Assembly (NCBI GenBank): GCA_029834535.1
Contig: JAQMWT010000521.1
Coordinates: forward strand, 1 to 64,000
DNA from: Chrysophaeum taylorii
Lineage: Eukaryota > Sar > Pelagophyceae > Pelagomonadales > Pelagomonadaceae
Direction: 5' to 3'
DNA: 64,000 nucleotides
Positions 1,285-64,000 of this stretch are shown piece after piece (positions within the stretch are counted from its first letter, which is position 1; every line of letters begins with the position of its first letter). A program made the position numbers and the translations under genes. The notes below the pieces were generated by a model that saw nothing but the letters and a program-made list of their open reading frames with translations, ran no database searches and was not told where the DNA came from.

Positions 1285-1350
1285 AATAGGCGAAGCATTT
1301 TGTGGGAACTCAGACGTCGTAGGTGTTGCGACTGGAGCAGCTGGAGCGGG

Positions 1351-2778: not shown

Positions 2779-2885
2779 TGTGTGGAAACTCTGGGTTATT
2801 TGTTGTGTGTGATCTGTTTGAAATATATTGGTGAAGAAAGCTGGCCTGTATGTTTTAGTTAGTGAGGCATGATCGGGATCGAACG

Positions 2886-3249: not shown

Positions 3250-3263
3250 ATCGGGATCGAACG

Positions 3264-4813
3264 TTGGAGATAGGCTACTTCACGCAAATCACAAACGATC
3301 GGACACAAGTTTGTATACAATACATGATAGGTGCCAGCTGGAATAGCGTTAGCAATCATGTCACGACACAGACCAGGAGATATAGACAAAAGAAAATTAA
3401 TTTGGTGCGCTGAAAAGTTATTGGCGCGTGCCAATTCTCGTGTCGAATAGTGTCGAAAGACGACCAACTCGTGGATCGTACACCAACATGCTTGTATATC
3501 AACGAATAGTGGGAGTGGGTGTATGAATGGAATGGATTCTAGCGCCCATTCCCCTGACACTAGAGGCAATGAACCCCAGGTACCTGCTTTGAGACAAATT
3601 CATGTCACTTAGAGCAAAGGACCTGTCGACAAACTCGAGATGGTTAGACTTCGAGTAGAAGATGAGAGAATCCTGAAGCACAGGAGAGCTGTGTGACACG
3701 AGGGTGTGCATTAAGCAGCGTGTGTCCCGTCACGATGATATGCTTGACATAGCCATAAGAAGCCAGTCGCAGATTCAACACAGCCGTTTTGTCGACTCCA
3801 CTCTCATGCGATTGCCGAGTGTAGGTCTCGCCAAAGGGGTTAATGTGGGCTTGCTATTTAGAGGAAGGGTTGGTGACGGTGATGTCACCGCATGCGTGTC
3901 TTCCACCTGTGATGTAGATGATGGAGGAACTTGAGGATTTATTTATAAATAACCTATGTGAAGGTTGGTTAGTTTCGGACGTTGTAATACGAAAAGACAC
4001 AGATAAAGTGATTGAGTTAGGGAACAAGCGTCCCTCAATATTATACAAAATGACAAATGCCTTGAGTTCGATAGGCGATGTCATACAAGACAAGGGCTGC
4101 TTGGAATTCGTTAAGTGTCCTATGCGAAAATTTGCGATGTCCTTTATTTCATATTGGGATGGGTGCTCCGTCGTCTTTTGAGGATGTAGCCGGAGAAAGA
4201 GCACAGTTAGTGTCTCTAGTTCTGCTACAGTCAGACGAACAGACCCTGTGCGATTAAAATATCCGAATGTCTTGGGATGAGACACATAAGGCGCATCTGG
4301 GAAGACTTGCGTCCATGGTTCATCGACATATAGCTTTCGACTTGTAGCGTTGCTATTATCCGCAATGTCAAGAAAGGAGGTGAGCCTTTTATTACGCCAG
4401 GTGAGCAAGCATAGCGGTCCAGAATTAAACTTGCGAGCAACAAGGATCCACCGTTCCCTAGCTTGATTGTCGCCACATAAGTAACAAGGAAAGCGATCAC
4501 AGATGTCCACCGTGTAGTGCATCGAAGAAAAGAGTACATTAGCAACTCTGATATGAACTTCGAAGGTTGCACCATGCGGTGGTGTCATCTCCATAAGGAG
4601 GACAAGTGGTTTTATGAGTTCAAGCACCCTTAATGCGCTTGGAAATAGGGAATCGTCCATATCTCGCTCGAAAGTCGAGATGGCTCTCCCGTTGATTACA
4701 TGTCTGTTGGTGCACGGGGACGTCAATTCCACAATATCCGAGTAGTATTTGGCGCGTTCATTATCAGACGCGCGGTGCAAATACGCAAGAAACATCGGAA
4801 GAGAGGGAAACAC
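3264..4813 (-). pseudogene. Copia-A copy 1 pol, region between protease and integrase
   Basis: Overlapping minus-strand frames at 4,813-3,854, 3,711-3,499 and 3,569-3,246 form one decayed coding stretch. It matches copy 2 at 47,981-48,544 (shared SHPKTF.YFNRTGSVRLTVAE and ITGGRH..GDITVTNPSSK) and at 61,351-61,600 (shared HYSTREL.CANNF.AHQ and IANAIPAGTYHVLYT). The second half corresponds to the gag-pre-integrase segment of copia elements. The first half is not a domain I recognise. Frame shifts near 3,850 and 3,550 break it. Confidence 0.65.
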
Positions 4814-5228
4814 TTCAATGGAATTACCAAACTTTGTTCAAAGCATGTGCGCAAGATTTTCTTCGCTCTCAACAAGAACTTTGACGTTAATGTTAAGTCG
4901 CAAGTCATTGGTAGCACATGCCAAGAGTGCTGGAGTGGATAAGCCGGCGCAAAGTAGAGTCACCGAGGGTGCACGAGAAATAGAAGCGGATGTCACAGTA
5001 TGATGCAAGTTGGGATTAAATCTGCGTCATACAGGAGGCGAGTTATGCTTGCGTTTATAGTGAAGCTGCGAACATGGACTCCAAGATAGACTCGAGCCAG
5101 GGAAGATAAATTACACGTTCAAGCAGCTTGGCATATAATCCTTGCATTTCACATTGCTCACTAAAAGAACATAGCTTGAACTGCAACGAGCGAAGTTCCA
5201 TCTTTCGCGCCTTAGCTTGCTGCAGAGA

Positions 5229-6450
5229 TTAGATTGGAAGCGTGCGAAGCAGGCTCTCCAGCCTGAACAGAGGAATCCGAACATTATCATCAATTTTACT
5301 GGTGATGTTAGACTGCCCCTTGAACTCAATCCCGAAGAGATGCATGCCTAGCTTGTCTTCGCCCCATTGCGTCATGCTTATCATGTGCAGATCAGGGTCG
5401 TTGTGTGGGTTTTGCTTAGGAAGAAACAAGGCGACATCAAGCTTGACGTAGCCAACATCAGGATGCTTCGGTAGAGCTGGGATGACTGTACGCATGATCG
5501 TCGCAAGGGTGATACTTTGAGTGTCAGGAGCAGTCGGAATTACTGGAGACAGTGATTCTGGCAACTTAACGATATGTAAGTGATCTGCGCAACGACGACC
5601 TCAAGAACCAGTGATGTGACATTTACCCAAAGAATATTTGTAACGCCACCAGGCGTTTACTCCTTTCAAATCGACTAATCTCAACCACAATCATTTCACG
5701 AGTCTCCGGATTGAAGCTCGTGAGCAGTGTGAAGGTTGATCGACAGGAAGGAAGCGCTCCTCAACCCGCTCGGCACCCTCGAGACGTCGAGGGCACAGTC
5801 GAAGCAGGGTAAGAAGTCAGCGCGCATGATCCTTTCCTGCCGCATCGACGTCGAGGGCGGCCCAAGCGAGGAGTGGCACACGCCCTGAGCACAATCCGGT
5901 CGAAATGGTGGAAGGTGGTGCCGCAGTCGGAACAAAGCGATCGGCGCGAGACAACCAGCGTGCACAAGCCGTCGCCCTCAACTAGGATCTTGTGAGCGGG
6001 CGTGTGGAAAGACCAGTCCTTGCTTTTCACCGGCGCCGTGTGCCACGCGCCATTCGTGCCGAAGCACGCCGGATTTGCGCATGAGCAGCAGGCTAGGCCG
6101 AATTGCTCGCAGACCCTCTTAGGCTCGCCGTCCTCGAAGTTGACGAAGGCGACCCGACGCCCTTGAATACAGACGTCGTCTTTTGATGGACGCAGGCGGC
6201 GCCCCAGTTGGTCTCGCGCTGCTTTTCCCTTGTACTCGTAGACAATCTTCGAGCGGCCCTGCTTGTACACTCGGAATAGCACCGAGGTGCGGCGCCGCGC
6301 CCAAGAGGGTTCCTGTCGCGCCACCGGCACAGAGTCGAAGAAGACGTTTGGCACCTTGTCGCACATGGCGCCATTAATATCGTGTTGAGAAGCACAAGAA
6401 TCGGCATATCCCGGTGTTGTCATAATGGGTAAATTATATTCGTTATACAA
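5229..6450 (-). pseudogene. Copia-A copy 1 aspartic protease, split by an insertion
   Basis: The start of the protease (6,450 to about 6,366) carries YADSCASQHDI. The remainder resumes after an insert at about 5,600-5,229 with PKHPDVGYVKLDVALF. The same two blocks are adjacent in copy 3 (10,949-11,335), where the active-site block reads LDSCAS and the later block PDHPGIGYVKIDYA. The canonical retropepsin triad is D-S/T-G. Both copies here have D-S-C-A-S. The intervening ~740 bp is foreign (see the zinc-ribbon fragment). Confidence 0.65.
5620..6365 (-). mobile_element. Inserted fragment with zinc-ribbon transposase-like ORF
   Basis: Foreign DNA inside the Copia-A protease. The minus-strand frame from 6,365 has clustered cysteines (LACCSCANPAC, then RSLCSDCGTTF) resembling the zinc-ribbon part of some eukaryotic transposases, for example the KDZ group. 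That assignment is inference. Its 3' part (5,640-5,843) recurs in the same orientation at 45,885-46,075, where the protein-level block LWLRLVDLK is conserved. An imperfect palindrome (AACGCC-acca-GGCGTT) lies at the left border in both copies. Exact ends and target duplication were not resolved. Confidence 0.5.
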
Positions 6451-6498
6451 CTTGAGGATTGTAGCATAGCACGCAGCATAGCACGCACGTGTGGAGCT

Positions 6499-7421
6499 TT
6501 ATCCAAATGCATACTGTGTTAGAAAGGTCTGCATTTGCTCAGAGGGTGTAACAACCAAAGTGAAAGCGTTATTTAGCTTTGGAAGTAGCCTAGGCGGTTC
6601 AGTACCATCATCTTGCTCTCCATCGTGTTGAGTTTTATTCTGTGACTCACCAGATTTCGGAGGAGCCTCCAGAGTTTGACAGCGGAAAATGGCACTTTGA
6701 GCTTTGGCATTTATGTGTTGCAATAGTGGTTGCGGGATATTGTCGATTTCATCGTCGTTAATAGAAAGAAAGGTATGAAACATCTCTTCCGTATCAACGC
6801 CCCCCCTCTGCTCCGCATCACTGGGGGATGTTGTAGGAGCAGAAATATTTACTTCATCCTTTTCTTCTGTTACAGGGGCGGATGAATCGGACTCGAGAAA
6901 ATTAGAAATGGCTTTAGACATGGACTCGACACGCGACATGTAAAGCTGTACTTGTGCAGCTTCTTCAGGCTCAAGGGTCTGTGTGGAAGCCTGGGAAGCA
7001 GTAGTCCACAGGGTGTTTAAAGGAGCCCATTTCTTCCTGTACATTATCAACATCAGTGGAAGAACTAGGGTTCGCGTCCTGTAATTTACCAAACAGATGG
7101 AGAAGTCGCTCGGCCTGATAATTGGCCCTTTCCATAAGAGACACACTTGAGCGTGCGCTGCGATTTGTAGTCTGTGAGTAAACGGGTCGGTCGTAACTGG
7201 TGCCTTTGGTATTATAGTTGGATAGCGGCCTGTAATAATAAGTGTCTCAGGCGAGATCGTCGAAGATATATCTTTAACGTTGCGCAATTACGTGCATAGA
7301 AGCCAGATTTACCTGCAACTGTAGCCAGCAAAGAATATGTGCTATTTAAGCCGCCATGTGACTCCTGAATGGTATCCATTAATAACACCTCTGGGGGTTT
7401 CGATGCTGTCGCTCCAGGCAC
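6499..7421 (-). pseudogene. Copia-A copy 1 gag, C-terminal region
   Basis: Two overlapping frames (7,421-7,212 and 7,287-6,499) carry the acidic, Ser/Thr/Glu-rich C-terminal gag region just before protease. The first contains ESHGGLNSTYSLLATVAGKSG. The second contains a long acidic spacer ending in QMQTFLTQYAFG. The equivalent region of copy 3 is 11,366-11,680. No CCHC knuckle is visible. Between 7,422 and 7,913 the gag is broken by many stops, so this is a degraded coding remnant. Its role in capsid assembly is inferred only from position. Confidence 0.55.
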
Positions 7422-47907: not shown

Positions 47908-48659
47908 TAATATCAATGCTATAAGTCGAAAGTTATATGTCGATGAACCACGGACGCAAGTATTTCCCGATGCTGCTTACGTGTCTCATCCTAAGACCTT
48001 TTGCACCTTTAATCGCACAGGGTCTGTTCGCTTAACGGTAGCAGAGCTTACAACATTAACTATGCTTTTTCTACGTCTGCACTCACAGAAAACGACAGAG
48101 CACCCGTCACTATATGATATTAAAAACATCTCCAATTTTCGCCTTGGATTCCTATCAAACTCAAAGCAACCCTTGTCTTGTATGACATCGCCTATTGAAC
48201 TCAACGCGTTTGTCATCCTATACAACATCATGGGACGCTTGTTCCCAAAATCAATTACTTTCCCTGTGTCTTTTCGTATTACCACGTTCGAAACTAACCA
48301 ACCCTCACGCAAGTTATTCTTAAACAAATCCTCAACCACTCCCATCATTTACATCACAGGTGGAAGACACACAGGCGGTGACATCACCGTCACCAACCCC
48401 TCTTCAAAGTACCAAGCTCATATCAACTCATTTGTCGAGACCTATACGCTGCAATCGCATGAGAGCGGAGTCGACAAAATGGCTATTTTAGAATCTGCTA
48501 CCGTTTTTTTTGTGGCTATGTCAAGCATATCATCACGCTGGTGAACTGCGGAACACACGTTGCTTAATACACATTCTTGTCTCACACAGTTCTCCAGTGC
48601 ATCTGGATTCACTCATTTTCTACTCGAAAACTAACCTTCTCGAGTTTGTCGACAGGTCT
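47908..48659 (+). pseudogene. Copia-A copy 2, left part (before nested insertion)
   Basis: Plus-strand Copia-A sequence homologous to the copy 1 segment 4,350-3,600. The frame 47,981-48,544 shares SHPKTF, NRTGSVRLTVAE and ITGGRH.GGDITVTNPSSK with copy 1. After 48,544 the frame changes but similarity continues to CGAGTTTGTCGACAGGTCT, where Copia-B begins. The matching continuation (TTTGCTCTACGTGACAT) is found 12.6 kb away at 61,222. The 5' part of the element (gag, protease) is missing at 47,908. Confidence 0.85.
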
Positions 48660-48856
48660 TAGAGATACAAAATTTGATTTAGGGTTAGTAACCCCCTATC
48701 CTAGGGTTAGCTCTCTTACTTTTAGCACTTTTTTATTCAGAAAAACGCTGTGTTATTTACACCGTGCTGTCCTCGTTGTTAGAGACAGATACGAGGGCAG
48801 ACTACCACTGCTCTCACTCTGCAGCAGGGTAGCACAGTTGAAATTGCTGTTCTCTA
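48660..48856 (+). repeat. Copia-B 5' LTR
   Basis: 197 bp, TAGAGATACAAAATTT to GCTGTTCTCTA. Ends are TAGAGA...TCTCTA instead of the usual TG...CA. Contains a telomere-like TTAGGGTTAG pair. Preceded by GGTCT, the target duplication. Confidence 0.9.
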
Positions 48857-48866
48857 GGTATTGGGC

Positions 48867-49126
48867 TCCCGGGCGGGCCGGTTGGCAGCCGGAACGTTCG
48901 CAGTGGGACGGGGTATGGCCGGGGGGCGAAGACGGAATGTTATCGACGAGTTGGTTGTCAGTCACATCGCGGTCTCCTCGTCGCATGGCGACAAGCTTGA
49001 TGGTCACTCTCCGCCGACCGACCTTTCAGCGCTCCTCGTCTACAGGCCCGTGATTCCGGACTGGCTCCTGTCGGTCCGGCCTGGCTCCCATGCTCGGGAG
49101 AGGTCTGAAGTTAGTTAGTTAGTTAG
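48867..49126 (+). mobile_element. TTAG-tailed retroposon, copy 2 (5'-truncated)
   Basis: About 260 bp, homologous to the last 260 bp of the copy at 2,886-3,249. Flanked by the 12-bp target duplication TAGGTATTGGGC (48,855-48,866 and 49,124-49,135). It landed immediately downstream of the Copia-B 5' LTR, separating it from the primer-binding region and so disabling reverse transcription of this copy. Ends in (TTAG)4. Confidence 0.9.
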
Positions 49127-49210
49127 GTATTGGGCACCAGTCCCGGTATCAGCAGAGTCCCAGGATTTCCAGAAGAGTTCCGCTCCCTGACGTTCCTGAA
49201 CCGAAACAAG

Positions 49211-50985
49211 ATGCCAGCCAATCAAGAACTCCAAAAGGAGATAAACGACCAAGAAGCTCGCATAGAGGCAAAAAGCATACAAGGGCGATGCAAGCACAAG
49301 CTCAAGTCATACAAGCACAAGCTCAAGCGCTACAAGCACTCGAAGCACGACTCAATGCCATGCAGACACCACCCGCCGTCGCCGCTGCGACTGCTCCCCC
49401 CACAGCTCCACAAGACCCCAAGACCAAGTCAAACACCTTCACTGACCCCCCTAGCGCCGTCCTCAAGTCAATGGACTCCGCTCAAGTCACCCCCCAAATG
49501 CTCTCGTTTCGCGTTATGCAGTTGTTCGTCGAACATCTCATGCCTGAAACAGGCATAACGCAATACTTCTTGCAGGGCTTCTACACGTGGGAATCCGTCT
49601 TACGCGGATCTAATGATCTAGCTGACGCTCTCCTAAGCCACTGCATCAAGGAATATGACAAGGACCCCGATAACCATGCCACCGCCGGCAATACTCAAGA
49701 TTTCCAAGGCCGTTTCGTCTACTACAAGGGCGTCTACCGCAAGTTCGGCAAACACTTCCTTGAGAACGTCTATGAGCCAAAACTCCAAGAACTGAAAGAC
49801 CAAGACACAGACACGACCGATACGACGAAAGGAAAGTTATATCCGGACACGCAACCTCACCTACAAGGAAAAGAAGCCGACTTCACCGTGTACCTCCGCG
49901 AGACCGCGCACCCCCTCTTTCGCCGTATCCTGCATGCCGGTAGCGACTCCGTCAAGCACCCAGCATACGGCGAAATAGATGCACTCGGATCATCCCATCC
50001 GATAGGACTCGAATTCGTACTACAAGTCCGTCTTGCACTTGACAAGCACACGGGCCAGAACCACGTCCACCATGCGCATTACGTCTACAATGCCTTCCTG
50101 GACACGCCGTTCAACCCTGAAAATCCACGAACCTGCGCATTATATAGATTATATGCGCCACGTTCAACAACAACTTCGCCAAATCACCGACGATGCCTCT
50201 CTCCAACTTACCGACCGAATAATCCTCAAGGAAATCCACCAAATTCTGCGGTTCAAATACCCCCCAAGCTTACTATACTCCCGCGCCCCAACGCATATAG
50301 AGGGCTTCACTCGTCTTGCCAACTGCCTTCGCACTCCCAACGACTCGCTGTCACTCGACGAAGACAAAGACGCGATAAACCATTTACCCAAGTTGATCGC
50401 CCGCATCACGGTTATCTCCACTTCGAGCGCAGCTTTTGGGCTCACCTCAAGCCTCACCCCACTCTGAATTTCAAACCGTTGCGATTCGTCACTGACTTCG
50501 GTCGTCTGCCGACCAAAGATAAAGACAATCCACGTTTTCGCTCCCGCCGAAATGGCCTCCACCTCACCGACGATGATGCCGACACCTCACCCTCTGAAGA
50601 TGAAATTCTCCCGGATCCTGATGAAGCATCCCCAGAAGATAACGACCCCGTCGCTGTCTTTCTCACGGAAGCCAACCTCGATCAAGATGACGACACCGAT
50701 CTCATCCAACACCTACACGCTTACCGAAAAAGAACAATGTCCCGCCATCAGAAGAAGACCCCCCCGAAAAAGTCACCAAACCCTCGCTCCCCGTCGTACT
50801 ACGATGTCAATGACAGCCCTAAGCCCAAGGCCACCCCTGTCACCCTAACAATGAACAAACACTACCCCGAAAAACACAACCCCGCTGCCACTCCTGTCAC
50901 CCCAGACAAACGCGAGTACCCGCACCTCCGCAAGGTCACCTTTCCCACTCAAACCCATCCACCAAAACCATCCACTCCTGACTAA
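49211..50985 (+). pseudogene. Copia-B gag, frameshifted
   Basis: Starts at ATG (49,211). After ~25 codons the good frame moves to 49,288 onward (QAQAQALQALEARLNAMQ coiled coil), then a globular part (QYFLQGFYTWESVLRGSND, DFTVYLRETAHPLFRRIL). Between about 50,125 and 50,460 the coding frame is the neighbouring one (HYIDYMRHVQQQLRQITDD, TRLANCLRTPNDSLSLDE), returning with FKPLRFVTDFGRLPTKD. An acidic then basic Pro-rich tail follows. Two compensating shifts thus interrupt it. Position after the 5' LTR defines it as the structural particle protein. No zinc knuckle was seen. Confidence 0.75.
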
Positions 50986-51083
50986 CCGTTCAAGGTCCCC
51001 CCCCCCGTGATGTTCGTCGCAAGCTCCAGATCATCCGGAACCTTAGTCAAGCCGGTCGCCAACACACATCCAACTCAGAGGGC

Positions 51084-52038
51084 ATGACCAAGCTCATCAA
51101 CCTCATCACCAGTATTTCCGATGAGATACTTCTCTCCGAGGTTGATTCCGACGCCGCCGAGTTTCTTCAGGTGCTATCATCCGATCCCCAGGATGATCCA
51201 CCCGGTGAGGGCGCAGCCGACGACGCAGATGACCAACGCCACCTCGGTTTCTATGATGATGACGGACAGCTAGGCCTCTACGACGATAACATTCCCGAAA
51301 TAAATGATGATGACGACTCCGCTGAAGACGGCGCACACTGCCACAGCGACTACATGCGTGCTCTACACCAGAGTCAGCTTTTTCGATGATGGTTGCCGAC
51401 GACGCATGTGCCGCCAACCAAAAATTACTAAATCAGGCACCACGACTCATGATGAAGAACTTCCCGACATCATCTGAACTCTCTCCCAGAGTCGCAGACT
51501 TTCTTTGTGCCACTTACACTACAGGAAAGACCCCCACAAAGACCAACTCGCTGCACGGATGCAATGGACCCGGCACTGAAATTTCTCTAATTGACGGTGG
51601 CGCATCATTTTGCTTCACTCGCACAATCGAACATTTTGTTCCCGAGTCCATACGCAGGATTCCTGAACATACCATCCGCATGGGCAGAGGCACCTTAACC
51701 AGCCACTTCATCGGTGTCGAACCGTTGTATTTGCACGTTGCAGGTCTCTCCTCAAAGGATGTAAAAGACTCCACAGGTTACGTCTTATACCTCGTCTTTC
51801 TGGTCGTCCCGCACTTCAGACCAGGTCTACAGGTTATAGCGACCTCTCGACTAAAAGCTCTGAACGTTCAAGCAACAGATCCACCGCTGCCCTACGAACC
51901 ATACTTGTACGAACTCCTGACCACCTCAACTTCAGATCCCCATGATTACAAAACACTTATAGGCACAACCGCAGTAGTTCTCGCCAATCGCCAAACTAAT
52001 GGTCTCTTGTCCCTGCCATCCCACCCAAAGCAAACATA
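51084..52038 (+). pseudogene. Copia-B acidic spacer and aspartic protease
   Basis: An acidic 101-codon piece (51,084-51,389, ISDEILLSEVDSDAAEFL) is followed by 51,386-52,038. The latter contains EISLIDGGASFCFTRTIEHF, the retropepsin active-site block (D-G-G-A-S in place of D-S/T-G-A-S), and later LYLVFLVVPHFRPGLQV. It would cut the polyprotein into particle, integrase and RT parts. When the retroposon at 52,039-52,301 is discounted, the frame runs without a stop straight into the methyltransferase frame, so the two were once a single translation product. Confidence 0.75.
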
Positions 52039-52301
52039 TCTAACTAACTAACTAACTTACCTACTTACTTACTTCAGACCTCTCCCGAGCATGGGAGCCA
52101 GGCCGGACCGACAGGAGCCAGTCCGGAATCACGGGCCTGTAGACGAGGAGCGCCAAAAGGTCGGTCGACGGAGAGTGACCATCAAGCTTGTCGCATGCGA
52201 CGAGGAGACCGCGATGTGACTGACAACCAACTCGTCGATAACCTTCCGTCTTCGCCCCCCGGCCATACCCCGTCCCACTGCGAACGTTCCGGCTGCCAAC
52301 C
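52039..52301 (-). mobile_element. TTAG-tailed retroposon, copy 3 (minus strand)
   Basis: About 260 bp, the complement of the copy at 48,867-49,126, with a mixed (CTAA)n/(CTTA)n tail at 52,040-52,073. The flanking short duplication is around AAACAT (52,032-52,037 and 52,303-52,308). It separates the protease and methyltransferase coding parts of Copia-B. Confidence 0.85.
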
Positions 52302-52316
52302 AAAACATTCCGCGCT

Positions 52317-54211
52317 GTGTTTAGTTTCCACACCGGAACGAAAATGTCCCTCAAGGATGAGCTCGCAAACATAATGCAAAACGTCGCCAAGGCGCGCTCG
52401 CAATCCCGTCTCCTCGATTTCGCCAAATTACTGCAAAATTCTACATTCTTGGCGGAATTGATCAGCCTACCGCGCACTGTCGTCCAATATGCATTCACTG
52501 GCTCAGCGGACCTCTCTGTGCAAGCACAACCCCCTCCGCTACACACAGCCATTATTGCAGGTGGACTCCACCAAGAAGGCTTTGACTCTTTTCGCAAACG
52601 CTTCGACAAACGCATCACTGTCGTGGTCACCTGTGAAATACACCCTATTATGCGCGCCCGCGCACATCAACTCTTCCCGCACGCTCAGCATTATGCGGAT
52701 CTGAGAAAACTCGCTGACGCTCTGCAAACCGGCAAAATACGACTACCTCAACTGGACTTGGCTGTATTCACCTTGCCAAGTCAACATCTGAGTATAATGA
52801 AAGAATATGACGTCTATGCCACTCCGGTGACCGCCGACCTCTTCGTCAAAGAACAAATCCGCTTTGTTCGTTGGACACTTCCAACATACACTATTGTCGA
52901 GAACGTACCCCCCACCCCCCGAACTTATCACGAGTACACTGAACTTGCCAAATGCTATCAGTGCATGGGTTACTTCAGACACTCCGCCGTCTACAATGCC
53001 TCCGCTTTTGGTGACGTCATAAGCAAGAACCGCTACCTCGCTGTCTTTGCCCGACATCCGCTCACCGACTACAACCTCGAGAAAACCGCTTCTCCCTGGT
53101 TAATATCTCCTCCGAGCATGGTCCCCCCTCCTGGACCCAAGTCACACTATCCCCGACGATCTCTGGATAGCAAACCGCGCCCTTCGTGGCACAGTGACTC
53201 GCTCCACGTTTGACTACTACCAGAACAAAGCCACATTCTCGTACGCACCCGCCAACGCAGCTCAACTCTCGATTTCCGAGAATGCACGATCTGCCAAATG
53301 CTTGCGCGCTTGAAGAAGCCCTTCACGGATCTAGGACTCGACGCCGACGGCACCTCTATGCCTCGATGACCAATATCTCCCATCTCTTGGCATTCACATT
53401 GCTGCACAATCACTTGTCGCAACACCCTACTCTTACCGCATGGAACACACTGCGTTGCTTTCACGCCTCAGAGTCCCAATGTGCTTACCATTGAGATGGA
53501 GCCATCACCGGCACTGCCGCCGCTGCCGTCGCATGCGGCTACTTCCCGCGCGCATCCCACACCTTGCGCTCACGGCCCCCTACGATACTGGACTGTTCAC
53601 ACCAACCCGCAGTCTTCTCGCCAACACACACATTCTCCCTGGATGTTCCCAAGGGCACCGCCTTTCTGGTCGTCGCCTATACCAACTCCTTGGCAGCCGC
53701 TCACAGCTGCTTGCGCCCCTCCACGTGGGTCCACTACATGAATCCCGGCTTTGCCGCGATCGATTCACGAGGGCGAATTACTCTCGATGACCCCACGGGA
53801 CTAATAATGTCCGAAGCGCGCCCCACTTTCGCGGATTACGTCGGCGACATCGGCGACACGCTCCAGAAATCCACAAAGTGCTACTCGGTCACTGGCTCGT
53901 ACCCAACCAACACGAGCTACTCCAACGCATTACTGCTGATCTCTCCCGACCACATCCGATACGCGACTCTCAATGAAATCGCAAAGTTTGGACACCACTC
54001 GGACCCGGAACTGCTCCGCCTGTTCCAACAGCATCCGCCGTACTTCGCGTTCAAGGCACTGGCCAACGCCGTCCCGCACATCATGCTGCAGGCTAAGTAC
54101 AGCGCTGTCCTCGCACTCCACGAATCGCATGACCATGTGAACCTTCACATCGAATGGGCAACCATACGCAATGGCATTCCCAGCCCCGGAGCCATCAACC
54201 ACGTTGCATAA
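52317..54211 (+). pseudogene. Copia-B cytosine-C5 DNA methyltransferase domain, frameshifted
   Basis: Motifs of the C5-MTase family appear in the canonical order. Motif I region IIAGGLHQEGFDSF (~52,550); motif II acidic residue in VTCEIHPIMRARAH; motif IV LDLAVFTLPSQHLS (~52,754-52,795), where the family has PPCQ; motif VI YTIVENVPP (52,885-52,911); motif VIII MGYFRHSAVYNASAFG and KNRYLAVFARH (~52,960-53,055); a target-recognition-like stretch (53,110-53,310, frame-shifted); motif IX IRYATLNEIAKF (~53,953); motif X KALANAVPHIML (~54,052). The nucleophilic Cys of motif IV is Ser (AGT, 52,779-52,781). At least three frameshifts and a terminal stop break it. It lies between protease and integrase, once in frame with the protease. 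It would have methylated cytosine in DNA. Whether the serine is ancestral or decay cannot be told from one copy. Confidence 0.8.
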
Positions 54212-54309
54212 TTTTTCTTGAACATCTCCAGCCGTCTCTTAGCAGTGGGGGACCTCAAAATCAACTCCCTCTTCAATGCCGTTGCAGATGCTCACCATGC
54301 TGCGATCCG

Positions 54310-55300
54310 CAAGCCAAGCAAATCAAACACTTCGAGACGCTAGTTGCCGAGGCCACAGTTGCTAAAGTCCGAGTCGATAAGCGACACACTCCTCCTCGGA
54401 CTTCCACTGCCGCTCTGCCCCCCTTGCACAAGCCCGGCACTATTCAGCACGCAAAAAGAGTGCTTTTGGTCACTCGCTGGCACCGCATACACCACCAACA
54501 ACCCGAGATTCTTCGCCGCAAAAGTGCTGCTAATGTAACGAATCTCCGGCCAGGTGATGATCGGTATCTGCAAGACTGCAGCGAATGCAAGCGCTGTCAA
54601 CCGCATGTTAGCGTCACCCACAAGAACTCTTCCTGGTCACAGGATGAACTGGCCTACGCCCCTGGCCAACATCTCCACATGGATGTCTCATATCCCAGCA
54701 TCAGCAAATGTTATGGTGGCTTTCGATACATCATGCATTTCGTGTGTGTTATTTCGGCACACAAATGGGTATACTTCCTGCGGAAACTGGACGCGCAGGA
54801 CGTTCTGGCCGGCATCCTCTACGTGGTCAATGTGATTAAGGTCGAATTCGATGTAAGTGTGAAAATCATCTCGTCTGATGCCTTTTCCACTTTCCGCTCC
54901 GAAGCTTTCCACCCGCTCAAGGCACAACTCGGTATCCAGTTTCAAATCATTGGTCGCCACCTACACCAGCGGAACTTCGCGGAAAACATCATTAAGGAAA
55001 ACACACGAGGCATTGTAGTCCGCCTCCTAAAACTTCGCAATGTCCGCATCGAAGGAAAGCCTATTGGCGCCGAGTATTACCACCCGTTTGCTCTACTGCA
55101 TAAGATCCAAGCAGACAATCAGCGCTCTCATGGACTGCCATCGCGCAATAACATGACCTGCGCCGTTCCCCGGCGCATCATGTCACCCACGGCACCACTT
55201 CTGAAGCTCCTCCCCTTCTGGCGAACCTGTCACCTTTGTCTATCCTCAAAGTCACAAACTGGAACCCTCCAGCGTCTCCGCCTCTTACTTTCGCAGTAAC
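54310..55300 (+). pseudogene. Copia-B integrase (DD35E)
   Basis: Zinc-binding HHCC region ends in DCSECKRCQPH. The catalytic core follows with HLHMDVSYPS (Asp codon 54,682-54,684), KIISSDAFSTF (Asp 54,877-54,879) and FAENIIKENTR (Glu 54,982-54,984). The spacing between the second Asp and the Glu is exactly 35 residues, as in retroviral and copia integrases. The frame 54,154-55,299 is open across the core, so this domain itself is intact. The connection upstream (stop at 54,211, frame change ~54,310) and downstream (~55,220) is broken. It acts in insertion of the element's cDNA into chromosomes. Confidence 0.85.
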
Positions 55301-56365: not shown

Positions 56366-56422
56366 TGGGACATCTCAGCGCATCAGCACTACCACTTATC
56401 TTCTCGTCACAGACACGCCTTC

Positions 56423-57655
56423 ATGCATGATTCTGGCGAAATAGGACACCTCTTTCCAAGTCAAAGTGGTCCGAATCAAGACATTCTCCAAGAAGTCATG
56501 GACTATGACTCACAGCACATCGACCATGTCGTGTTACAACTCTTGACTGCTGAAGACATTGTCTATGAGCCTGAAAAGATTGTCGAACTCAAAAGACTCA
56601 GCGAAGAAGATAAGCTTAAGCATATTGCTTCGATTCGCAAGGAAATTGAGGGCTCGTGCTCTAACGGCGTCTTTAAGTTCGAACCTTTACCGCCAGACCG
56701 TTCGTCTATCTCGACGAAACTCGTGCTGAAGATCAAGTATTTTGCTGACGGTACCCCAGACCGCTATAAAGCTCGTCTAGTTGCCCGAGGTTTCTTGGCA
56801 CGTGTCGGCATTGACTTTTATGCCACATCTTCACCGACCGCGATGTTCGCCACCAACGGGTTATTGCTCGCCATCGCTGTGAAGCACAGGCTCCCGGTCG
56901 CGCACGCAGACATCCCCCAGGCATTCATCCAATCGGCACTCGATCGCTCGGCATGGATAGACTTACCTCGAGGGATACGTGTCTCGCAAAACCTTGTCCA
57001 ACAGATACAGAGGAACCACCCAGAGTCCAAGCTAGCTCTCCGACTCGTCAGTGCTCTCTATGGTCTCAAACAGTCAGCTTTGTTGTGGAACATTAAGCTC
57101 GACTCGTTCCTTCGACAACATGAGCTCGAACGCTCACAAGTAGACACTTGCCTCTATATCAGTTGGGATCGATCTATCAACAGACGGGTTCTCCTATCCG
57201 TATCTGTCGATGATCTATTGATCACTGGTACCAACACCGCCAAAATCACATCTCGTCGCACCGCTTTGGAGTAGGAATATGGCAAAGGTACATGGTATGA
57301 TAACGTCCGATCCTTTCTTGGTATCGATGTACACTACAATGTCTCCGCTGGTCACCTCACTATGAATGTAGCCGCGAAGATAAACAAGATGCTCGCCGAG
57401 CATAAAATCAACCTCCGTACTACTGACGTCCCCTACTCGGACATTCTCACTCAAAAACCTTCTGCTAAGCTTCTTTCCGACTTGGCTCCTACCTTAGAAA
57501 TTTTACACAAGCATTTTCCCCATTACTGTGGCACTAGTATTTATTTGTCTGTCACTTGTCGTCCAGACATCACCACTCTGTGCAACAAATGCTGCATGCA
57601 CAACCCTGAGCAGACCCATCTTCTCCACTTGTATGTTTTACTTCGCTATTTGTAG
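56423..57655 (+). pseudogene. Copia-B reverse transcriptase
   Basis: RVT_2-type RT: YKARLVARGFLARVGIDF, VAHADIPQAFIQSALD, WIDLPRGI, LRLVSALYGLKQSALLWN, CLYISWD and the catalytic SVDDLLITG (YVDD-like, both Asp kept). An in-frame TAG (57,272-57,274) interrupts it. The following frame continues FLGIDVHYN and SAKLLSDLAP, the connection region. Apart from that stop the domain looks complete. Confidence 0.85.
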
Positions 57656-58278
57656 GGTACTCCGAATTATTCTCTCGACTATTTATCCGACAGCCCCTCT
57701 ATTGCGCCCTTTATTCGGCGTCTGATCGGCAACTACCCATAATTGCATCATCTTCGTTCGCCCATTATTTGTTTTACTGATGCCAGTTTCGCTGACCGTT
57801 CTGACCCTTGCTTAAGATCTCATCCTGGTGCATGTATTTTCGTATTTGGCAGTCTCGTATTCTGGTCTAGCAAACGCCGAACTCTTACTGCCAAAAGCAC
57901 CATGGAAGCCGAAATCATCGCCGCTAGCGCAGCCGCTGATGAATGTCACTGGTTTCATAAAATCTTCTCTTCTCACCCTTATCTGCTTTCACTGATCAAG
58001 CTCACGCTATTCCCCTGCTTATTGACAACGCTAGCGCCTTACATGTCGCTAATCATCCTAAAGTCAGTGCTCCCTCTCGTCATATCAATTTACGAGAATT
58101 TCGCGTTCGTGACTACCAGGCCAACTCGGTCATTCGTCCTCTCTGGTGTCCCACTCACTACCAGATAGTTGATCATTTTTCAAAGCTCCTTCCCCGCACT
58201 TTATTCCACAAGTTCAAGAACGCCTACGGTGTTCACTCTACATCTTCTTCACCACCATCTCATCAAGTTACTCTTTCT
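57656..58278 (+). pseudogene. Copia-B RNase H
   Basis: Copia-type RNase H: CFTDASFADRSD (first Asp), VFWSSKRRTLTAKSTMEAE (Glu), SAAADECHW. After a frame change it continues with LLIDNASALHVANHPKV (third Asp) and RHINLREFRVRDY. The order and spacing are typical of the copia C-terminus. Stops (57,653-57,655; ~57,741) and one frameshift break it. It ends a few bases before the nested element at 58,284. Confidence 0.8.
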
Positions 58279-58283
58279 GCTAC

Positions 58284-60902
58284 TAGAGACAGAAAATTTG
58301 ATGTCACCTGGCCGGAGTCCTTGCGCAGTGGTAGAAGTGCTTGTCCTCTGTGCGTCCTGTCTCCTTCGACGCAGGGACAGCACTTTACAGTGTCAGGTGA
58401 CGGGCTTCTTGAGCGTGTACGTAGTGTGTTAGCGATATAGAGAGGGGGGGGGTGTGGTGGGGGGGGGGGTCATGGCGAAAATGGAATTTTCGTTCTCTAC
58501 GCCCTCACAGAGCGAACTCGGGAGAGTGAAGCTCTGGACCAAGAAAGGTCGACGAAGGAAAAGAGAGGACGGCGGGGAAGTAGCCGAAGAGGCTGCGGTC
58601 GTGAGAAGCTTGGTGGTTGGGTTTGGTGGCGGGCGACGGAGTCGTCCATGGAATCAGGGGAAGGGTCGGGGAAAGGTGCGTTGTAGTAGTTGTGGTCTTC
58701 GTCGTAGAGGCTGTATGAGGCCGAAAGTTCGATTCATGGGGGGTGGGTGATGCGGGTGGTGAGGTGTTGGAGGGTGGATTCGGCTAGAAGAAGGCCTGGA
58801 GGGGTGTAGGTGGTACGGGGGCCGGGTCCGTTGTGTGGGAAGAGGGTATGTTTGAGTGGGGAGTCGGCGTAAGATGGAGGTGGGTCACATGGTGGAGGCG
58901 AAGGAATGCGGTCGGGAGGGGACTTGGGGAAAGGAGTGTCGTGTGCGGGAGGAATGAGGTGGTGTGAGGAGTCCGGGGTTCCGGGACCGGGGCCGGGAAA
59001 GTGGAAGAGGGGTGGGTCGTGAGAGAGGTTGAGGGGAGTGACGCCCTCAGAAGAGCAACGTGGGGCGGAAGGGAGAGTCGGAGCGACAGTGGGTGTGGGA
59101 GCGAAAGGGGTTGGCGGTGAAGGAACAACTTGCGGCTGTGGTACCGGTGGGGATATGGTGTCGGTGCATGGGGGTGTACCAGGGTCGTAACTGTAGTTGG
59201 AGTAGGTGTGAGGGGTGATACGAGGAGCATCCGGGTGGATAGGCGGTGGAAGGGAGTTGAGGATTTGCTAAAGAACAGCATCCTGGGCTCGTTGGGTGTC
59301 GTCGAGGATCGCGAAGGAGGCTTCTTGGGCGGAAAGATGAGCTTGTGCTTGGGCGAGGTCAGATTTGGTTTCGTCGTGAGCACGGGCTTCGGCGTCAAGG
59401 CGGGCGTTGGCGCGGGCGAGTGCGGTTTGAGTTGCGATCAATGCGTGGTAGAGAACTTCGGGGTTCATAGAGGAGGGAGGAAGGGTGGTGGTGTCGGAGA
59501 AGTTGCCAGGGCCGTCACAACCATACGTGGCGAAGTTGCGCGGGTGGAGGCGTTGGTCTTCGGAGAGGAGTGTGCCATGTACCGGGGTAATAATGGCAGT
59601 GGTGTCGGAGATGGGGACTTGAGTGTGGAGTGGTGGTGGTGTCGATGAAAGCGAACAAGGTGATGGGGATGGGGTGGTGCCTGGAGAGGCAGACGAAGGT
59701 GGGGTTGTGGTTGGGGTGACGACCGGGATGGTCGGTGGGACGATCGGGACGGTAGGTGTGGTGACCAGGGTGGTCGTGGCTTTGGGTGGTGTGACCGGAG
59801 TGGTCAGGGGTGTTGATGGTGCAGAAGCGGCGGCTATAGTTGGAGGAGCTAGCGGTACGGTCGGAGGGGAGGTTCTGCTGCAAATCGCGTCGATCTGTTT
59901 GGCCCTCTGCTGGTAGAGCTGCTGAAGCATGGCGCGGCTGGCGGCTGCGGCAGCGTCGAACTGCAGTGGGGTATGTAGCTGCCTGTACAGCTGCCGAGAC
60001 AGATCGAGGTGGGCGGCTACTCGGGCACGGTGGGCGGCGGAGGCCGCGGCGAGTGCGTCGAGTTGATCGGCGTCGAGATCTTCTTCGTCGTCGTCGTCGA
60101 GATCTGCGTCGTCGGCGGCATGGTCGGCGGCGAAATCGTCTTATGGGGGTGCGATCGCTTGGTGCGGGTCTTGCTTGGTCTTGCGTGCGCGACATCGTGT
60201 GCGGCGAGTCGCGGGACGTGGTTGGGGGCTGTGGGTCTTGACTTGCGAACGTGCTGGGGGTGGGGTCCGGGGCTGGGAGTGAAGGTGTACTCGTTGGGGC
60301 GGGTGCGGGCGGGGTTCCGCCGGTAAGAGCGGCGAGCTGGTTCTGCAGCTGCCGAAGCTGGTCCCGAAGGTGTGCGCTTTCAGCGGTGTGGGCGGCGTCG
60401 CGTCGTTGTTGTTCAGCGTCGCCTCGTTGTTGTTCATCGTCGCGTCGTTGTTGTTCATCGGCGCGTTGTTGTTCGCGTTGGTGTATGTCGTCGATGGCTT
60501 GTCGCATATCTTGGTTGCCGCGAGACATCTTGGCCGATGATGATGACGTGGTTGGGATCTTGGCTTGACTTGAGTTGGGGGAGTGGCGTCGAAGTGAACT
60601 TCGATAGCCTGTCGAGGTCGGGACGTCGAACTAGCGATTGTCTCCGAGTAACGCGAGTTTAAAGGACTCCGCGACTAGGGCCCAAACCTAGAGACAGAAA
60701 ATTTGATGTCACCTGGGCGGAGTCCTTGTCGCAGTGGTAGAAGTGCTTGTCCTCTGTGCGTCCTGTCTCCTTCGACGCAGGGACAGCACTTGACAGTATC
60801 AGGTGACGGGCTTCTTGAGCGTGTACGTAGTGTGTTAGCGATATAGAGAGGGGGTGTGGTGGTGGGGGGGGGTCGTGGAGAAAATAAAATTGTCGTTCTC
60901 TA
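58284..60902 (-). mobile_element. Nested 2.6-kb Gag-only LTR element
   Basis: LTRs at 58,284-58,499 and 60,689-60,902 (214-216 bp, TAGAGACAGAAAATTT to CGTTCTCTA), flanked by the 5-bp duplication GCTAC (58,279-58,283 and 60,903-60,907). Orientation is minus: the purine-rich tract (CTGTGAGGGCG in complement) abuts the left LTR and a primer-site-like GGTTTGGGCCCTAG abuts the right LTR. The LTRs differ at only a few positions outside the G-run, so it is younger than its Copia-B host. It contains only a Gag-like frame, so it must use enzymes from another element, presumably a Copia-B relative with similar ends. Confidence 0.88.
59268..60528 (-). CDS. Gag-like coiled-coil, Pro/Thr-rich protein of the nested element
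   Basis: Begins at ATG (complement of 60,526-60,528). The N-terminal ~75 residues form a coiled coil with DEQQRRDDEQQRGDAEQQRR repeats and LRDQLRQLQNQLAAL, followed by a Pro/Thr/Ser-rich region. The reading then appears to pass to the neighbouring frame (59,930-59,268). That frame holds a long Thr-Pro-Val low-complexity tract and a second coiled coil (ARANARLDAEARAHDETKSD). No protease, integrase or RT motif. A frameshift between the two parts is likely decay or sequence error. Confidence 0.55.
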
Positions 60903-61019
60903 GCTACTCTTCCACCGTACAACTCCGCCCAGAACACTCTCTACATTCTTGTCGATGGAAAGTCGCTTCCCGCTTAGTTTGATCCAGATTTCGCTCACCG
61001 AGTTCAATCTGTGAGGGCG

Positions 61020-61216
61020 TAGAGATACAAAATTTGATTTAGGGTTAGTACCCCCCTATCCTAGGGTTAGCTCTCTTACTTTTAGCACTTTTTAATTCAG
61101 AAAAACGCAGTGTTATTCACACCGCGCTATCCTCGTTGTTTGAGACAGATACGAGGGCAGACTACCACTGCTCTCACTCTGCTGAAGGGTAACATAGTTG
61201 AAATTACTGTTCTCTA
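61020..61216 (+). repeat. Copia-B 3' LTR
   Basis: 197 bp, same ends as the 5' LTR and about 94% identical. Preceded by CTGTGAGGGCG (purine-rich priming tract) and followed by the target duplication GGTCT (61,217-61,221), after which Copia-A copy 2 coding sequence resumes. Confidence 0.9.
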
Positions 61217-61221
61217 GGTCT

Positions 61222-62110
61222 TTTGCTCTACGTGACATACGCTTGTCTCAAAGCAGGTATCTGGGCTTCATCACCGCTAGTGACAGAAAAATGTGAGTTA
61301 AAGTACACTCCATCTACACTCCCACTCCCACTATCCGTGGATATGCAAACATGTTGGTGTATGATCCGAGAGTTAATCATCTTCAACATTACTCGACACG
61401 AGAATTGGCATGCGCCAATAATTTCACAGCGCACCAAACTAATTTTCTTTTGTCTCTACCTCCTGATTTGTGTTGTGACATGATTGCAAATGCTATTCCA
61501 GCTGGCACCTATCATGTGTTGTATACACATTTGTGCCAGATCGTCTATGATCTGCGTAAATTAACCTTATCTCCATCTTTCGATCCCGATCATGCCAAAC
61601 TAACCAAAACACACAGGTCAGCTGTCTTCCCTAACATCTCTCCTACAGATCACTCACAACTACATTCACTGAGTTTTCTCACAATGCAACATCTACCAAA
61701 TAAAACTTTCAGGTGTTGTGATAATCTGTCCACTAAACCCGATCTACCTCAGTTTGATGTCGACTCTGTTGCACGTGTATTTATGTCTAACATCTCGTCT
61801 TTAGATGATACACCAACTTCCACCTCTAAACTTGAAGAAAAGCACATTCCACTAATACACCAAGACAAACACATGAGAAACATGCCTCCTTCGACAGAAA
61901 GGTACATTCTCGTGGTACACTCGCCTTTCGCGATGTACAGCGACGCGCTACAATCTTTCGTGACACTTATCATTCGAGTGACTCTCAAGCCACAAAAGCT
62001 GTTCAGGTCATCTCAAATTCAGGTCACCATCCATTTGACGTTCCATATCGGAAATTTTGTGTTGACTGCACTCTCCACAAGAAAAAGTTCCCGCACCCCC
62101 GCAATTTAAC
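61222..62110 (+). pseudogene. Copia-A copy 2, pre-integrase region
   Basis: Continuation of 47,908-48,659 after the nested Copia-B. The frame 61,351-62,109 shares HYSTRELACANNFTAHQ and IANAIPAGTYHVLYTH with copy 1, then the Ser-rich spacer with FDVDSVARVFMSN. The zinc-binding block FCVDCTLHK-type appears near 62,050 after a shift. Near 61,580-61,595 it holds the unoccupied version of the site where copy 1 has its TTAG-tailed retroposon. Confidence 0.8.
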
Positions 62111-62696
62111 GAAACAGCCATCCTTCGAAAAGACTTTCCAACCTGGGCATGTGATGGTGGATACATATCTATACTCTCCGAGTGGGGTCAATTCCGTCAC
62201 ATTTTGGTCTTCAGGTGTCTTACTTCGAAGTTTTTGTTAGTGTACTTCTGTCGCACTACGAATGCTAGCGAATCCTGTAAAGCACTCGAGCTTGTTCGCA
62301 ATTTCTGTGCTACCTATGTCCATGTGAAATTGAAACAAATCTACTGTGACTATTTTAAACCCTGTGTCCTATTTGTCCCAGTATGTTACAACTCCTTATC
62401 GTGTTGAACTTGGCATTTATATGTCTGCTTCCCCGCCTTATTTACATGACTTTAATCATGAGGTAGAAGCCGCTGTTAGTCATATAGCAACTGCTGCGCC
62501 CACTAGACTTAGGAGCCTACTGAATGTGTCATACAAGGGTCACCCTATAAAAGACCCTGCTCCACATTTTCCGTGGGCTGTAATTCATGCTGTTCAATCG
62601 TATAATCTCCTTCCTAATGTCTCTCTCGAACGTATTTATAATAAAGTGTTAAGTACCCAACAAATGTTGTTGGACCAGTGTAATGTCCCCCAATAA
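62111..62696 (+). pseudogene. Copia-A copy 2 integrase core
   Basis: Contains VMVDTYLYSPSG (first Asp context), CRTTNASESC, then after a frame change YVTTPYRVELGI, AVSHIATAAPTRLRSLL and PHFPWAVIHAVQSYNLLPN, matching copy 1 at 2,299-1,706. The catalytic core is split between two frames at ~62,350, so it is not translatable as it stands. Ends at TAA 62,694-62,696. Confidence 0.75.
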
Positions 62697-62729
62697 GACT
62701 ATCTAAAACCATTCGGTTCTGTATGTTAT

Positions 62730-63678
62730 TTGCATTTGGAATCTAATGAGTTTCATAAATACGAACCTCGCTGTCGTCCCTACATCTACTTATGTGGCGC
62801 TAATGTCATTAACCCGCTGGTTACACCCCATGTTAACCACTTAGCTGATGTTGTTCTCAATCCCGAGAACGGCCAAGTCCGTGTCTCTTCAAAACTTACC
62901 TTTTTCCATACTTCACTTCTAAATCTCCTCCCGATTATGAACAATCCCCACCACCTGCACCTTCTCCTGAAATACCCTTTTATGTTCAAGGCAGTCCCAG
63001 TGATGCGTTGCAGAGGGGAATTGCTGTGTCACCCGACACTGAACACGAGAGGAGGGCTACCTCTACTCCAGCTCCAGCTCCAGCTTCAGTTCCTGCACCC
63101 GCCCCAGCTGCTCCAGTCGCAACACCTACGACACATGAGTTAGCACCAAATGCATTGCCTATCTTGCAAACATTTCGTGAGCTCTTTTCACAAGATGACC
63201 TTCGTCTCACTCGAGGTCCTAATCAACCTCAACCTCGCCTTAAAACCAATCTTCAAGCTGTACAAGCTCGCATTACCCCGCCGACGATGGAAGCGTATAA
63301 GCAAGCTGGTGGTACGCTCGTCGATTTCAAATATGATTTGTCCAAGCAATACATCACTGTCTTCGACCCCACCCTCCACTCCCTGCATGCTGCTAATGGC
63401 ATCCACTGGCTGGCTATGCCTCCAGAGGGGGAATTTACACAAGCCCTTCATCGTCACGTTCACCAAGCGCCATCGCAATCTCCTTCACGCTCATCTTCTG
63501 GTGTGTGTCAAGGCAGTCACATCCATCCGTCGGGTGCCACACCAGTTCTCCCTCTTGATGACCCTAGCCTCTCGGATTTCCACTTACCTCGTGCTCTTGT
63601 TCATTTAATCACTGAACACGCCCAAGCATTTCAAGTTCCTCCCGCTCAATACGCGTACGCTCTGCTAACGCCCCCATA
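62730..63678 (+). pseudogene. Copia-A copy 2 integrase-RT linker
   Basis: Starts with NEFHKYEPRCRPYIYLCGAN as in copy 1, then Pro/Ala-rich repeats (APAPAS and PAPAAP). A second part (63,008-63,679) is shared with copy 1: LQTFRELFSQDDLRLTRG, AGGTLVDFKYDLSKQYIT and LHAANGIHWLAMPPEGEFT. A small deletion relative to copy 1 at about 63,670 shifts the frame and creates the stop at 63,677-63,679. Confidence 0.75.
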
Positions 63679-64000
63679 ATGGCACACAATGAAGCCCCCT
63701 ATGGAGCTTCAGAGCCCCACCTCTCCGACATCGAGGACTACATCAGCGAGCAGGCTCACTATATTGAGGCTCACCTCCACGCTGATCCTCTACTTGTAGT
63801 TCAACTAGTCGAAATTCCCGAACATACTACCGCTCACTCAGATGCTGATTCTTACGAGATCACCTATTTAACCCAAGATCAAGATCCTAGCACGGTCGGC
63901 TCTGATGAGTACAAGATCCAAGCTAAAGACATCAAGATCGATGAGTATGAGGTGACCTGCCTAAAAGGTCTTTCAGACGCTGATCGCAAGGCCTACATCT
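63679..64000 (+). pseudogene. Copia-A copy 2, start of reverse transcriptase region, runs off the window
   Basis: Open from ATG 63,679 to the edge. Shares EPHLSDIEDYI, YLTQDQDPSTVG, DEYKIQAKD and LKGLSDADRK with copy 1 (about 780-430). RT motifs proper lie beyond 64,000. The frame differs from the preceding linker because of the small deletion near 63,670. Confidence 0.75.

What the first reader, a model, noticed from the sequence alone, without database searches (positions are those of the whole stretch)
52317..54211. A Ty1/copia-type retrotransposon carries a cytosine-C5 DNA methyltransferase domain between protease and integrase
Seen: MTase motifs I, II, IV, VI (ENV), VIII, IX and X occur in order over ~1.9 kb, inside an element with matching LTRs, a 5-bp target duplication, gag, protease, DD35E integrase, RT and RNase H. 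Removing the retroposon at 52,039-52,301 leaves protease and MTase in one frame. Known: capture of C5-MTases by retrotransposons has been reported in a few lineages (I recall dinoflagellates and a charophyte alga). A copia polyprotein with MTase placed between protease and integrase is, to my knowledge, unusual. Inference: the element could have methylated its own cDNA or target DNA to control silencing or host defence.
Basis: partly seen in the sequence, partly recalled or inferred. Interest (0 to 1): 0.92.

Follow-up and report, generated by a model that had tools for sequence, protein, structure and literature searches.

The report
Retrotransposons carrying their own DNA methyltransferase
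This stretch holds a broken copia-type jumping gene from a large and likely old family, in the genome of what is probably an alga, whose members carry a cytosine-DNA-methyltransferase domain inside their replication polyprotein; intact relatives are predicted to be able to methylate their own new DNA copies.

Summary
A Ty1/copia element (48,660-61,216; 197-bp LTRs; 5-bp duplication GGTCT) carries a C5-cytosine methyltransferase (MTase) between protease and integrase. The window copy is dead: frames are broken, other elements sit inside it, and motif IV reads PSQ. It is no one-off. At least 131 merged loci in the 70.8-Mb genome carry this MTase; 31 of 32 copies compared keep the catalytic Cys, the window copy being the exception; median Ka/Ks is 0.23. 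In two relatives protease, MTase, integrase and RT lie in one open frame. Three further copia clades carry a diverged homologous MTase in the loci read, and a marine-eukaryote transcript encodes another relative. A joint profile finds only C5-MTases in the PDB (18 of 18, best M.HhaI, 2.9e-7), and the predicted fold matches DNMT1, DNMT2 and M.HhaI. One old capture is likely, in a retrotransposon type other than those I read about as DNMT carriers (LINE, DIRS, Gypsy). Only DNMT2 and DNMT5 were detected as host enzymes. Self-methylation of cDNA is the best-supported mechanism but untested; the copies show no strong CG-decay footprint, which counts against heavy CG methylation.

The parts
48655..48659 (.). 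5-bp target duplication GGTCT, left side
48660..48856 (+). 5' LTR, 197 bp, ends TAGAGA...TCTCTA
48880..49129 (-). retroposon inserted between LTR and gag; inverted copy of the one at 52,053-52,301
   Evidence: 94-99% complementary arms
49123..50985 (+). gag-like open frame
   Evidence: no fitting Pfam match
51326..52051 (+). protease region, LIDGGAS at 51,587-51,607
   Evidence: motif only
52053..52301 (+). retroposon inserted between protease and MTase; absent from relatives
52242..53213 (+). MTase piece 1 (motifs I-VIII; motif IV PSQ at 52,767-52,793); the frame begins inside the retroposon
53495..54211 (+). MTase piece 2 (end of target region, motifs IX and X)
54133..55299 (+). integrase (rve match at 54,655-54,948)
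   Evidence: E 1.3e-5
56366..57274 (+). reverse transcriptase (RVT_2 match at 56,669-57,253)
   Evidence: E 8.8e-32
57743..58168 (+). RNase H region (TDASFAD at 57,776)
   Evidence: motif only
58284..60902 (.). small nested LTR element with its own duplication GCTAC
61020..61216 (+). 3' LTR, 197 bp, 12 mismatches to the 5' LTR
61217..61221 (.). 5-bp target duplication GGTCT, right side
47915..48659 (+). left part of a clade-B copia element, inside its MTase region, into which the element jumped
   Evidence: 71-75% identity to four B copies
61217..64000 (+). right part of the same clade-B element (rest of MTase, then integrase)
   Evidence: match shown to about 62,480, further by eye
172..7302 (-). 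second clade-B copia element; MTase region about 3,249-5,026
   Evidence: (PF00145 E 0.022; RVT_2 2.1e-8)

Best explanation
A damaged Ty1/copia retrotransposon (48,660-61,216) carries a C5-cytosine DNA-methyltransferase domain between protease and integrase; it belongs to a set of at least four copia clades in one genome that likely inherited this domain from a single old capture, and in intact members the enzyme would methylate the element's own double-stranded cDNA before or at integration. Shown: the domain, its place, its presence in four clades, its conserved catalytic residues and purifying selection on it (clade A). Predicted: its C5-MTase fold. Inferred: one capture before the clades split; packaging in the particle with protease, integrase and RT, because it is made in the same polyprotein; DNA rather than RNA as substrate, because motifs and fold are those of DNA C5-MTases and it is kept beside the enzymes that handle cDNA; and that new copies enter the genome already marked, so that host DNMT5 can keep the mark and the copies pass as silent native DNA. 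My confidence is about 0.97 for the domain and its place, 0.85 for a single old capture and 0.5 for cDNA self-methylation; the figure below is for the whole chain.
For: 134 matches in the genome, 131 merged loci. One open frame through protease, MTase, integrase and RT in L011 and L012. 50 of 65 near-full-length RT rows (60% identity or more) have the MTase upstream. Ka/Ks 0.23, median of 45 pairs. Catalytic Cys in 31 of 32 copies, motif VI Glu in 31 of 31 readable, motif VIII Arg in 32 of 32. Clades B, C and D carry homologous MTases, tied to A by the transcript P0001. PDB profile hits 18 of 18 C5-MTases; fold matches. A different retrotransposon DNMT methylates CG in yeast (PMC5890265, passages).
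Against: No activity was measured. CpG observed/expected is 0.99 (A) and 0.97 (B), with only mild TpG/CpA excess, and C-to-T change at CG is 1.19 (A) and 0.99 (B) times that at other C, so no strong trace of CG methylation. Motif I is unusual in clade A (AGGLHQEGF) and motif IV in clade D (ECT). MTase Ka/Ks (0.23) is somewhat higher than protease 0.18, integrase 0.14, RT 0.13. A and B share only about 17% identity and need P0001 as a bridge. Clade A alone found no PDB sequence by single sequence and only weak C5-MTase matches by profile (best 0.019). The three clade-C copies read are broken in the MTase.
Confidence: 0.5

Rival explanations
1. The domain methylates RNA, for example the element's genomic RNA or the tRNA primer in the particle, and not DNA, as DNMT2 does among C5-MTases.
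For: No strong CG-decay trace. Best Foldseek row is DNMT2. De Mendoza et al. raise RNA methylation for the LINE type (PMC5890265, passage).
Against: DNMT1, M.HhaI and DNMT2 rows are close to each other in score, so fold does not choose; profile hits are mainly DNA enzymes.
Confidence: 0.2
2. The domain has lost its chemistry and serves as a DNA- or RNA-binding or structural part of the polyprotein.
For: Unusual motif I in clade A and ECT in clade D; long target region kept.
Against: Cys, Glu and Arg of the active site are kept in 31 of 32, 31 of 31 readable and 32 of 32 clade-A copies, and the Cys across all 17 rows of four clades and P0001.
Confidence: 0.15
3. The clades captured MTases more than once, from different sources.
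For: A-B identity is only about 17% over 252 residues; clade D has a long branch and its place is unresolved.
Against: Same place in the polyprotein in the loci read of all four clades; BLAST and profile links between all clades; B with C in both MTase tree and RT identity.
Confidence: 0.12
4. Assembly chimera or an independent insertion of a host gene.
For: One window alone could not exclude it.
Against: 131 merged loci on many contigs and contiguous open frames.
Confidence: 0.01

Closest known systems
KnitGypsy-Dnmt3 of Klebsormidium nitens (PMC5890265, passages)
   Same: LTR retrotransposon with a C5-MTase in the Pol polyprotein, kept under purifying selection
   Different: Gypsy, not copia; its DNMT belongs to DNMT3; place in the polyprotein not compared
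SymbioDIRS-Dnmt3 of Symbiodinium (PMC5890265, two text parts and passages)
   Same: C5-MTase in Pol; active on CG in yeast
   Different: DIRS element with tyrosine recombinase; DNMT3
SymbioLINE-Dnmt of Symbiodinium (PMC5890265)
   Same: Many copies; orphan DNMT lineage
   Different: LINE; DNMT in ORF1; CG-depleted, whereas the copies here are not
M.HhaI, DNMT1, DNMT2 (C5-MTases)
   Same: Motif order, catalytic Cys/Glu/Arg, predicted fold
   Different: 11-20% identity to the Foldseek rows shown; embedded in a retroelement polyprotein; the B-type regions tested have no Pfam match
Sola1-1_Ec32 of Ectocarpus (PMC12477816, passages)
   Same: Transposon with its own DNA methyltransferase
   Different: DNA transposon; enzyme predicted to make 4mC or 6mA

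Membership tests
Ty1/copia LTR retrotransposon | RVT_2-type reverse transcriptase | tested here: met
   E 8.8e-32
Ty1/copia LTR retrotransposon | integrase upstream of RT | tested here: met
   rve 54,655-54,948, RVT_2 56,669-57,253
Ty1/copia LTR retrotransposon | LTRs and 5-bp target duplication | tested here: met
Ty1/copia LTR retrotransposon | aspartic protease and gag by homology | tested here: inconclusive
   no fitting Pfam match; motif LIDGGAS by eye
C5-cytosine methyltransferase | PF00145 over cut-off | tested here: met
   window copy 21.2 of 22 bits; relative 34.3 bits; 57 genome stretches over it, 2 of them host genes
C5-cytosine methyltransferase | catalytic Cys of motif IV | tested here: met
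   31 of 32 clade-A copies; not met in the window copy itself, PSQ
C5-cytosine methyltransferase | MTase fold | tested here: met
   model pTM 0.63; all 50 Foldseek rows shown and all 50 VIA rows shown are C5-MTases; prediction only
C5-cytosine methyltransferase | makes 5-methylcytosine | not testable with these tools
   needs an enzyme assay
DNMT3-bearing retrotransposons (KnitGypsy-Dnmt3, SymbioDIRS-Dnmt3) | element of the Gypsy or DIRS type | tested here: not met
   RVT_2 (copia) RT and rve integrase
DNMT3-bearing retrotransposons (KnitGypsy-Dnmt3, SymbioDIRS-Dnmt3) | MTase falls in the DNMT3 clade | tested here: inconclusive
   no DNMT3 among 18 PDB profile matches; a DNMT3 row stands at rank 49 with close Z; no broad DNMT tree could be built

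The most novel reading that the evidence does not exclude
In this alga the copia elements, not the host, are the writers of new cytosine methylation: the element-borne MTases mark cDNA de novo and host DNMT5, a maintenance enzyme, copies the mark onward, so a transposon lineage has taken over one half of the genome's methylation system.
Probability: 0.2. Interest if true: 0.93.

Novelty: new variant of a known kind. Interest (0 to 1): 0.76.

Why it matters
Capture of cytosine methyltransferases by retrotransposons has been shown for LINE, DIRS and Gypsy elements. Finding it in copia elements, shared by four clades and under purifying selection in the one tested, would show that the habit is older and wider than reported, and that it can be a lasting part of a retroelement's life. 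The host shows DNMT2 and DNMT5 but no other DNMT in a six-frame search with PF00145. DNMT5 is known as a maintenance enzyme that can persist without a de novo enzyme (PMC13297926, passages), so this genome would be a direct place to ask who writes methylation when the host's writers are gone. B-type MTases fall below Pfam's thresholds, so such elements may sit unrecognised in other algal genomes.

Tried and rejected
Independent insertion of the MTase: rejected by 131 merged loci and by the contiguous frames.

p53-like target domain in clade B: the B profile's PDB rows at E up to 10 were p53 in 16 of 18 cases, E 0.15-1.6. PF00870 found one weak match in the genome (E 0.6, not at a listed B locus), and none of four B members matched any Pfam family at E up to 10, so I take it as chance.

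Clade-A MTase relatives among 5.8 billion proteins: none at E 0.01 by one sequence or at E 1 by profile; each time the best 7,996 candidates were scored. Viral contigs: none confirmed for A2, A1 or A4. Clade A by single sequence against the PDB: none at E up to 10; by profile 7 rows, all C5-MTases, best 0.019. Structure of clade A alone: pLDDT 28.5, useless. Profile comparisons of A with B and of both with host DNMT2 and DNMT5: no match. CG decay as proof of self-methylation: weak to absent. My first view that RT rows at 42-44% identity lack an MTase (0 of 5) was wrong: both such loci that I read carry a diverged one. Small-subunit rRNA for naming the host: the request did not complete.

Print: searches (and 80, 85 on DNMT5) and passages of six papers gave no copia element with a C5-MTase, apart from one sentence in PMC12344493 (section 5 read whole). 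Supplements were not available.

Full report
WHAT IS IN THE WINDOW. The finding lies in a Ty1/copia element at 48,660-61,216. Its LTRs are 197 bp each (48,660-48,856 and 61,020-61,216; 12 mismatches, 6.1%), end in TAGAGA...TCTCTA and are flanked by the 5-bp duplication GGTCT. Inside are a gag-like frame, a protease region with LIDGGAS, an MTase in two open pieces, integrase (rve, E 1.3e-5), RT (RVT_2, E 8.8e-32) and an RNase H region read by motif. Three later insertions sit in it: a retroposon at 48,880-49,129, a copy of the same retroposon in the opposite sense at 52,053-52,301, and a small LTR element at 58,284-60,902 with its own duplication GCTAC. The first MTase piece matches PF00145 at E 2.3e-4, 21.2 bits against a cut-off of 22; the second has no Pfam match. 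The motifs stand in the usual order, but motif IV is PSQ instead of PCQ. With the broken frames this makes the window copy dead.

NOT A ONE-OFF. In the window's genome (70.8 Mb, 697 contigs) the MTase piece has 134 matches; with 14 further rows these merge to 131 loci, 84 of which have a family RT row within 9 kb downstream. The count is raised a little by near-identical contigs (C25/C521, C10/C297) and lowered because only 124 of 1,669 candidates were scored. The same region of the relative L011 scores 34.3 bits with PF00145. Of 57 PF00145 stretches in the genome, 54 overlap an element match, one lies 0.4 kb from one and two are host genes. In L011 one open frame of 1,952 aa runs through protease, MTase, integrase and RT, and in L012 one of 1,868 aa runs into RT. 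The retroposon in front of the MTase is not in the frames of the five relatives printed nor in L011. Of 65 near-full-length RT rows with at least 60% identity, 50 have the MTase within 9 kb upstream; of all 145 such rows 93 do, and the commonest distance is about 3.5 kb.

SELECTION AND CATALYTIC RESIDUES. Among ten copies with the MTase region in one match (45 pairs) the median Ka/Ks is 0.23 at a median Ks of 0.41 (range 0.12-0.61); protease 0.18 (8 copies), integrase 0.14 (9), RT 0.13 (6). Some copies have stops or stretches read out of frame, which raises these values. Over 32 copies the motif IV Cys is kept in 31 (the window copy is the exception), the Pro before it in 32, the motif VI Glu in 31 of 31 readable, the motif VIII Arg in 32; the median codon keeps its commonest residue in 96%.

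THREE MORE CLADES. The element jumped into another copia element: the flanks 47,915-48,659 and 61,217 onwards match copies of a second clade, B, and in the copy L049 they abut with a 5-bp overlap. A further B copy lies on the minus strand at about 172-7,302. Clade B has at least 122 matches (122 of 1,066 candidates scored). Its MTase region shows motifs I (LLCSGMSTPAF), IV (SPCT), VI (EMT), VIII (QARER), IX and X by eye, but the regions tested have no Pfam match (three at E up to 1; four at E up to 10); the decayed window copy scores 0.022 with PF00145. A profile search found one protein, P0001, from a marine-eukaryote transcriptome (source label mmetsp; E 3.6e-78). It is 41% identical to B over 360 residues and is itself matched by PF00145 at E 4.4e-4, its only Pfam match at E up to 10 but under the cut-off, 20.2 of 22 bits. 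P0001 ties the clades together: a clade-A profile finds it at 6e-7, and A against B with P0001 added aligns over 263 columns (51% probability, E 1.5e-4; without P0001 nothing). Clade C (RT 66-68% to B; 99.5% between C560 and C98) carries the MTase in the three loci read, L053-L055, each broken there, and has at least 150 matches (150 of 1,000 candidates scored). Clade D (RT 42-44% to A) carries it in both loci read. BLAST between clades: B-C 48-49%, A-D E 7e-12 to 2e-13, B-D 2e-5 to 2e-7, D-P0001 3e-9, A-P0001 3e-7 at best. Of the 150 best-scoring copia RT rows of the genome (150 of 1,670 candidates scored), 65 have an A, B or C MTase detected upstream (for A only the one family-A row of that list was counted, by hand), a lower bound because each MTase search scored only its best 120-150 candidates. 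I found no copia clade shown to lack the domain, but I looked into few.

HOST. It is a eukaryote with actin in one open frame and 84 matches to the light-harvesting family, so probably an alga; it could not be named. Outside the elements PF00145 marks two loci: one is DNMT2 (PDB 1g55, E 4e-39), the other DNMT5 (PDB 7r76, E 3e-143; the related entry 7r77 is titled DNMT5). Genes with many short exons could be missed by a six-frame search, and 123 of 474 candidates were scored.

HOW IT PROBABLY WORKS. Shown: an MTase with kept catalytic residues, under purifying selection, made in one polyprotein with protease, integrase and RT. Inferred: it enters the particle with them, meets the double-stranded cDNA there, and methylates it; the new copy is then marked on arrival and DNMT5 could keep the mark. 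Against heavy CG methylation: CpG observed/expected is 0.99 in A and 0.97 in B (host loci and gene regions 1.13-1.46; three clade-B/C RT loci 0.86), and C-to-T change at CG is 1.19 (A, 31 copies) and 0.99 (B, 5 copies) times that at other C. Another sequence context, short-lived marking, or an RNA target would all fit.

AGAINST WHAT IS KNOWN. De Mendoza et al. 2018 (PMC5890265; two of seven text parts and passages read) report DNMTs in Symbiodinium LINE and DIRS elements and in a Klebsormidium Gypsy element, say that Symbiodinium Copia lacks the domain, and show CG methylation in yeast by the DIRS type. A 2025 paper (PMC12344493, section 5 read whole) speaks of DNMT3 in 'LTR Copia and DIRS' elements but credits the 2018 paper; I could not tell whether this is a slip. 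The searches showed no other copia element with a C5-MTase. I therefore call it a new variant of a known kind.

Noticed in passing
about 51,340-51,400; L001-L020: gag and pol lie in different frames: the gag stop overlaps a pol-frame ATG as TGATGG in all 15 loci (of 18 scanned) where the search string, which contains the ATGG, was found. This could be stop-restart or -1 frameshift expression; L013 and L017 have one T fewer there.
   Followed up: partly
contigs C25 and C521 of G000 (also C10 and C297): Near-identical contigs with the same matches at nearly the same coordinates: haplotypes or an assembly duplicate, so copy counts are slightly inflated.
   Followed up: no
48,880-49,129 and 52,053-52,301; L006, L053: A retroposon of about 250 bp inserted repeatedly into these elements, seen twice in the window and by its translation in two relatives.
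   Followed up: no
58,284-60,902: Small LTR element (LTR TAGAGA...TCTCTA, duplication GCTAC) nested in the copia element, with long open frames mainly on the minus strand; its LTR ends resemble those of its host element.
   Followed up: partly
clade B MTase, L050:871-2670 (-), about residues 288-346: Weak likeness to the p53 DNA-binding domain (E 0.15), not borne out by Pfam.
   Followed up: yes
L021 (C634) and L022 (C621): The host has a DNMT2 and a DNMT5 relative; no other host DNMT was detected.
   Followed up: partly
clade C RT rows: Many clade-C-like RT rows share one score (148.1 bits), which suggests recent amplification; the three C copies whose MTase I read are broken there.
   Followed up: no
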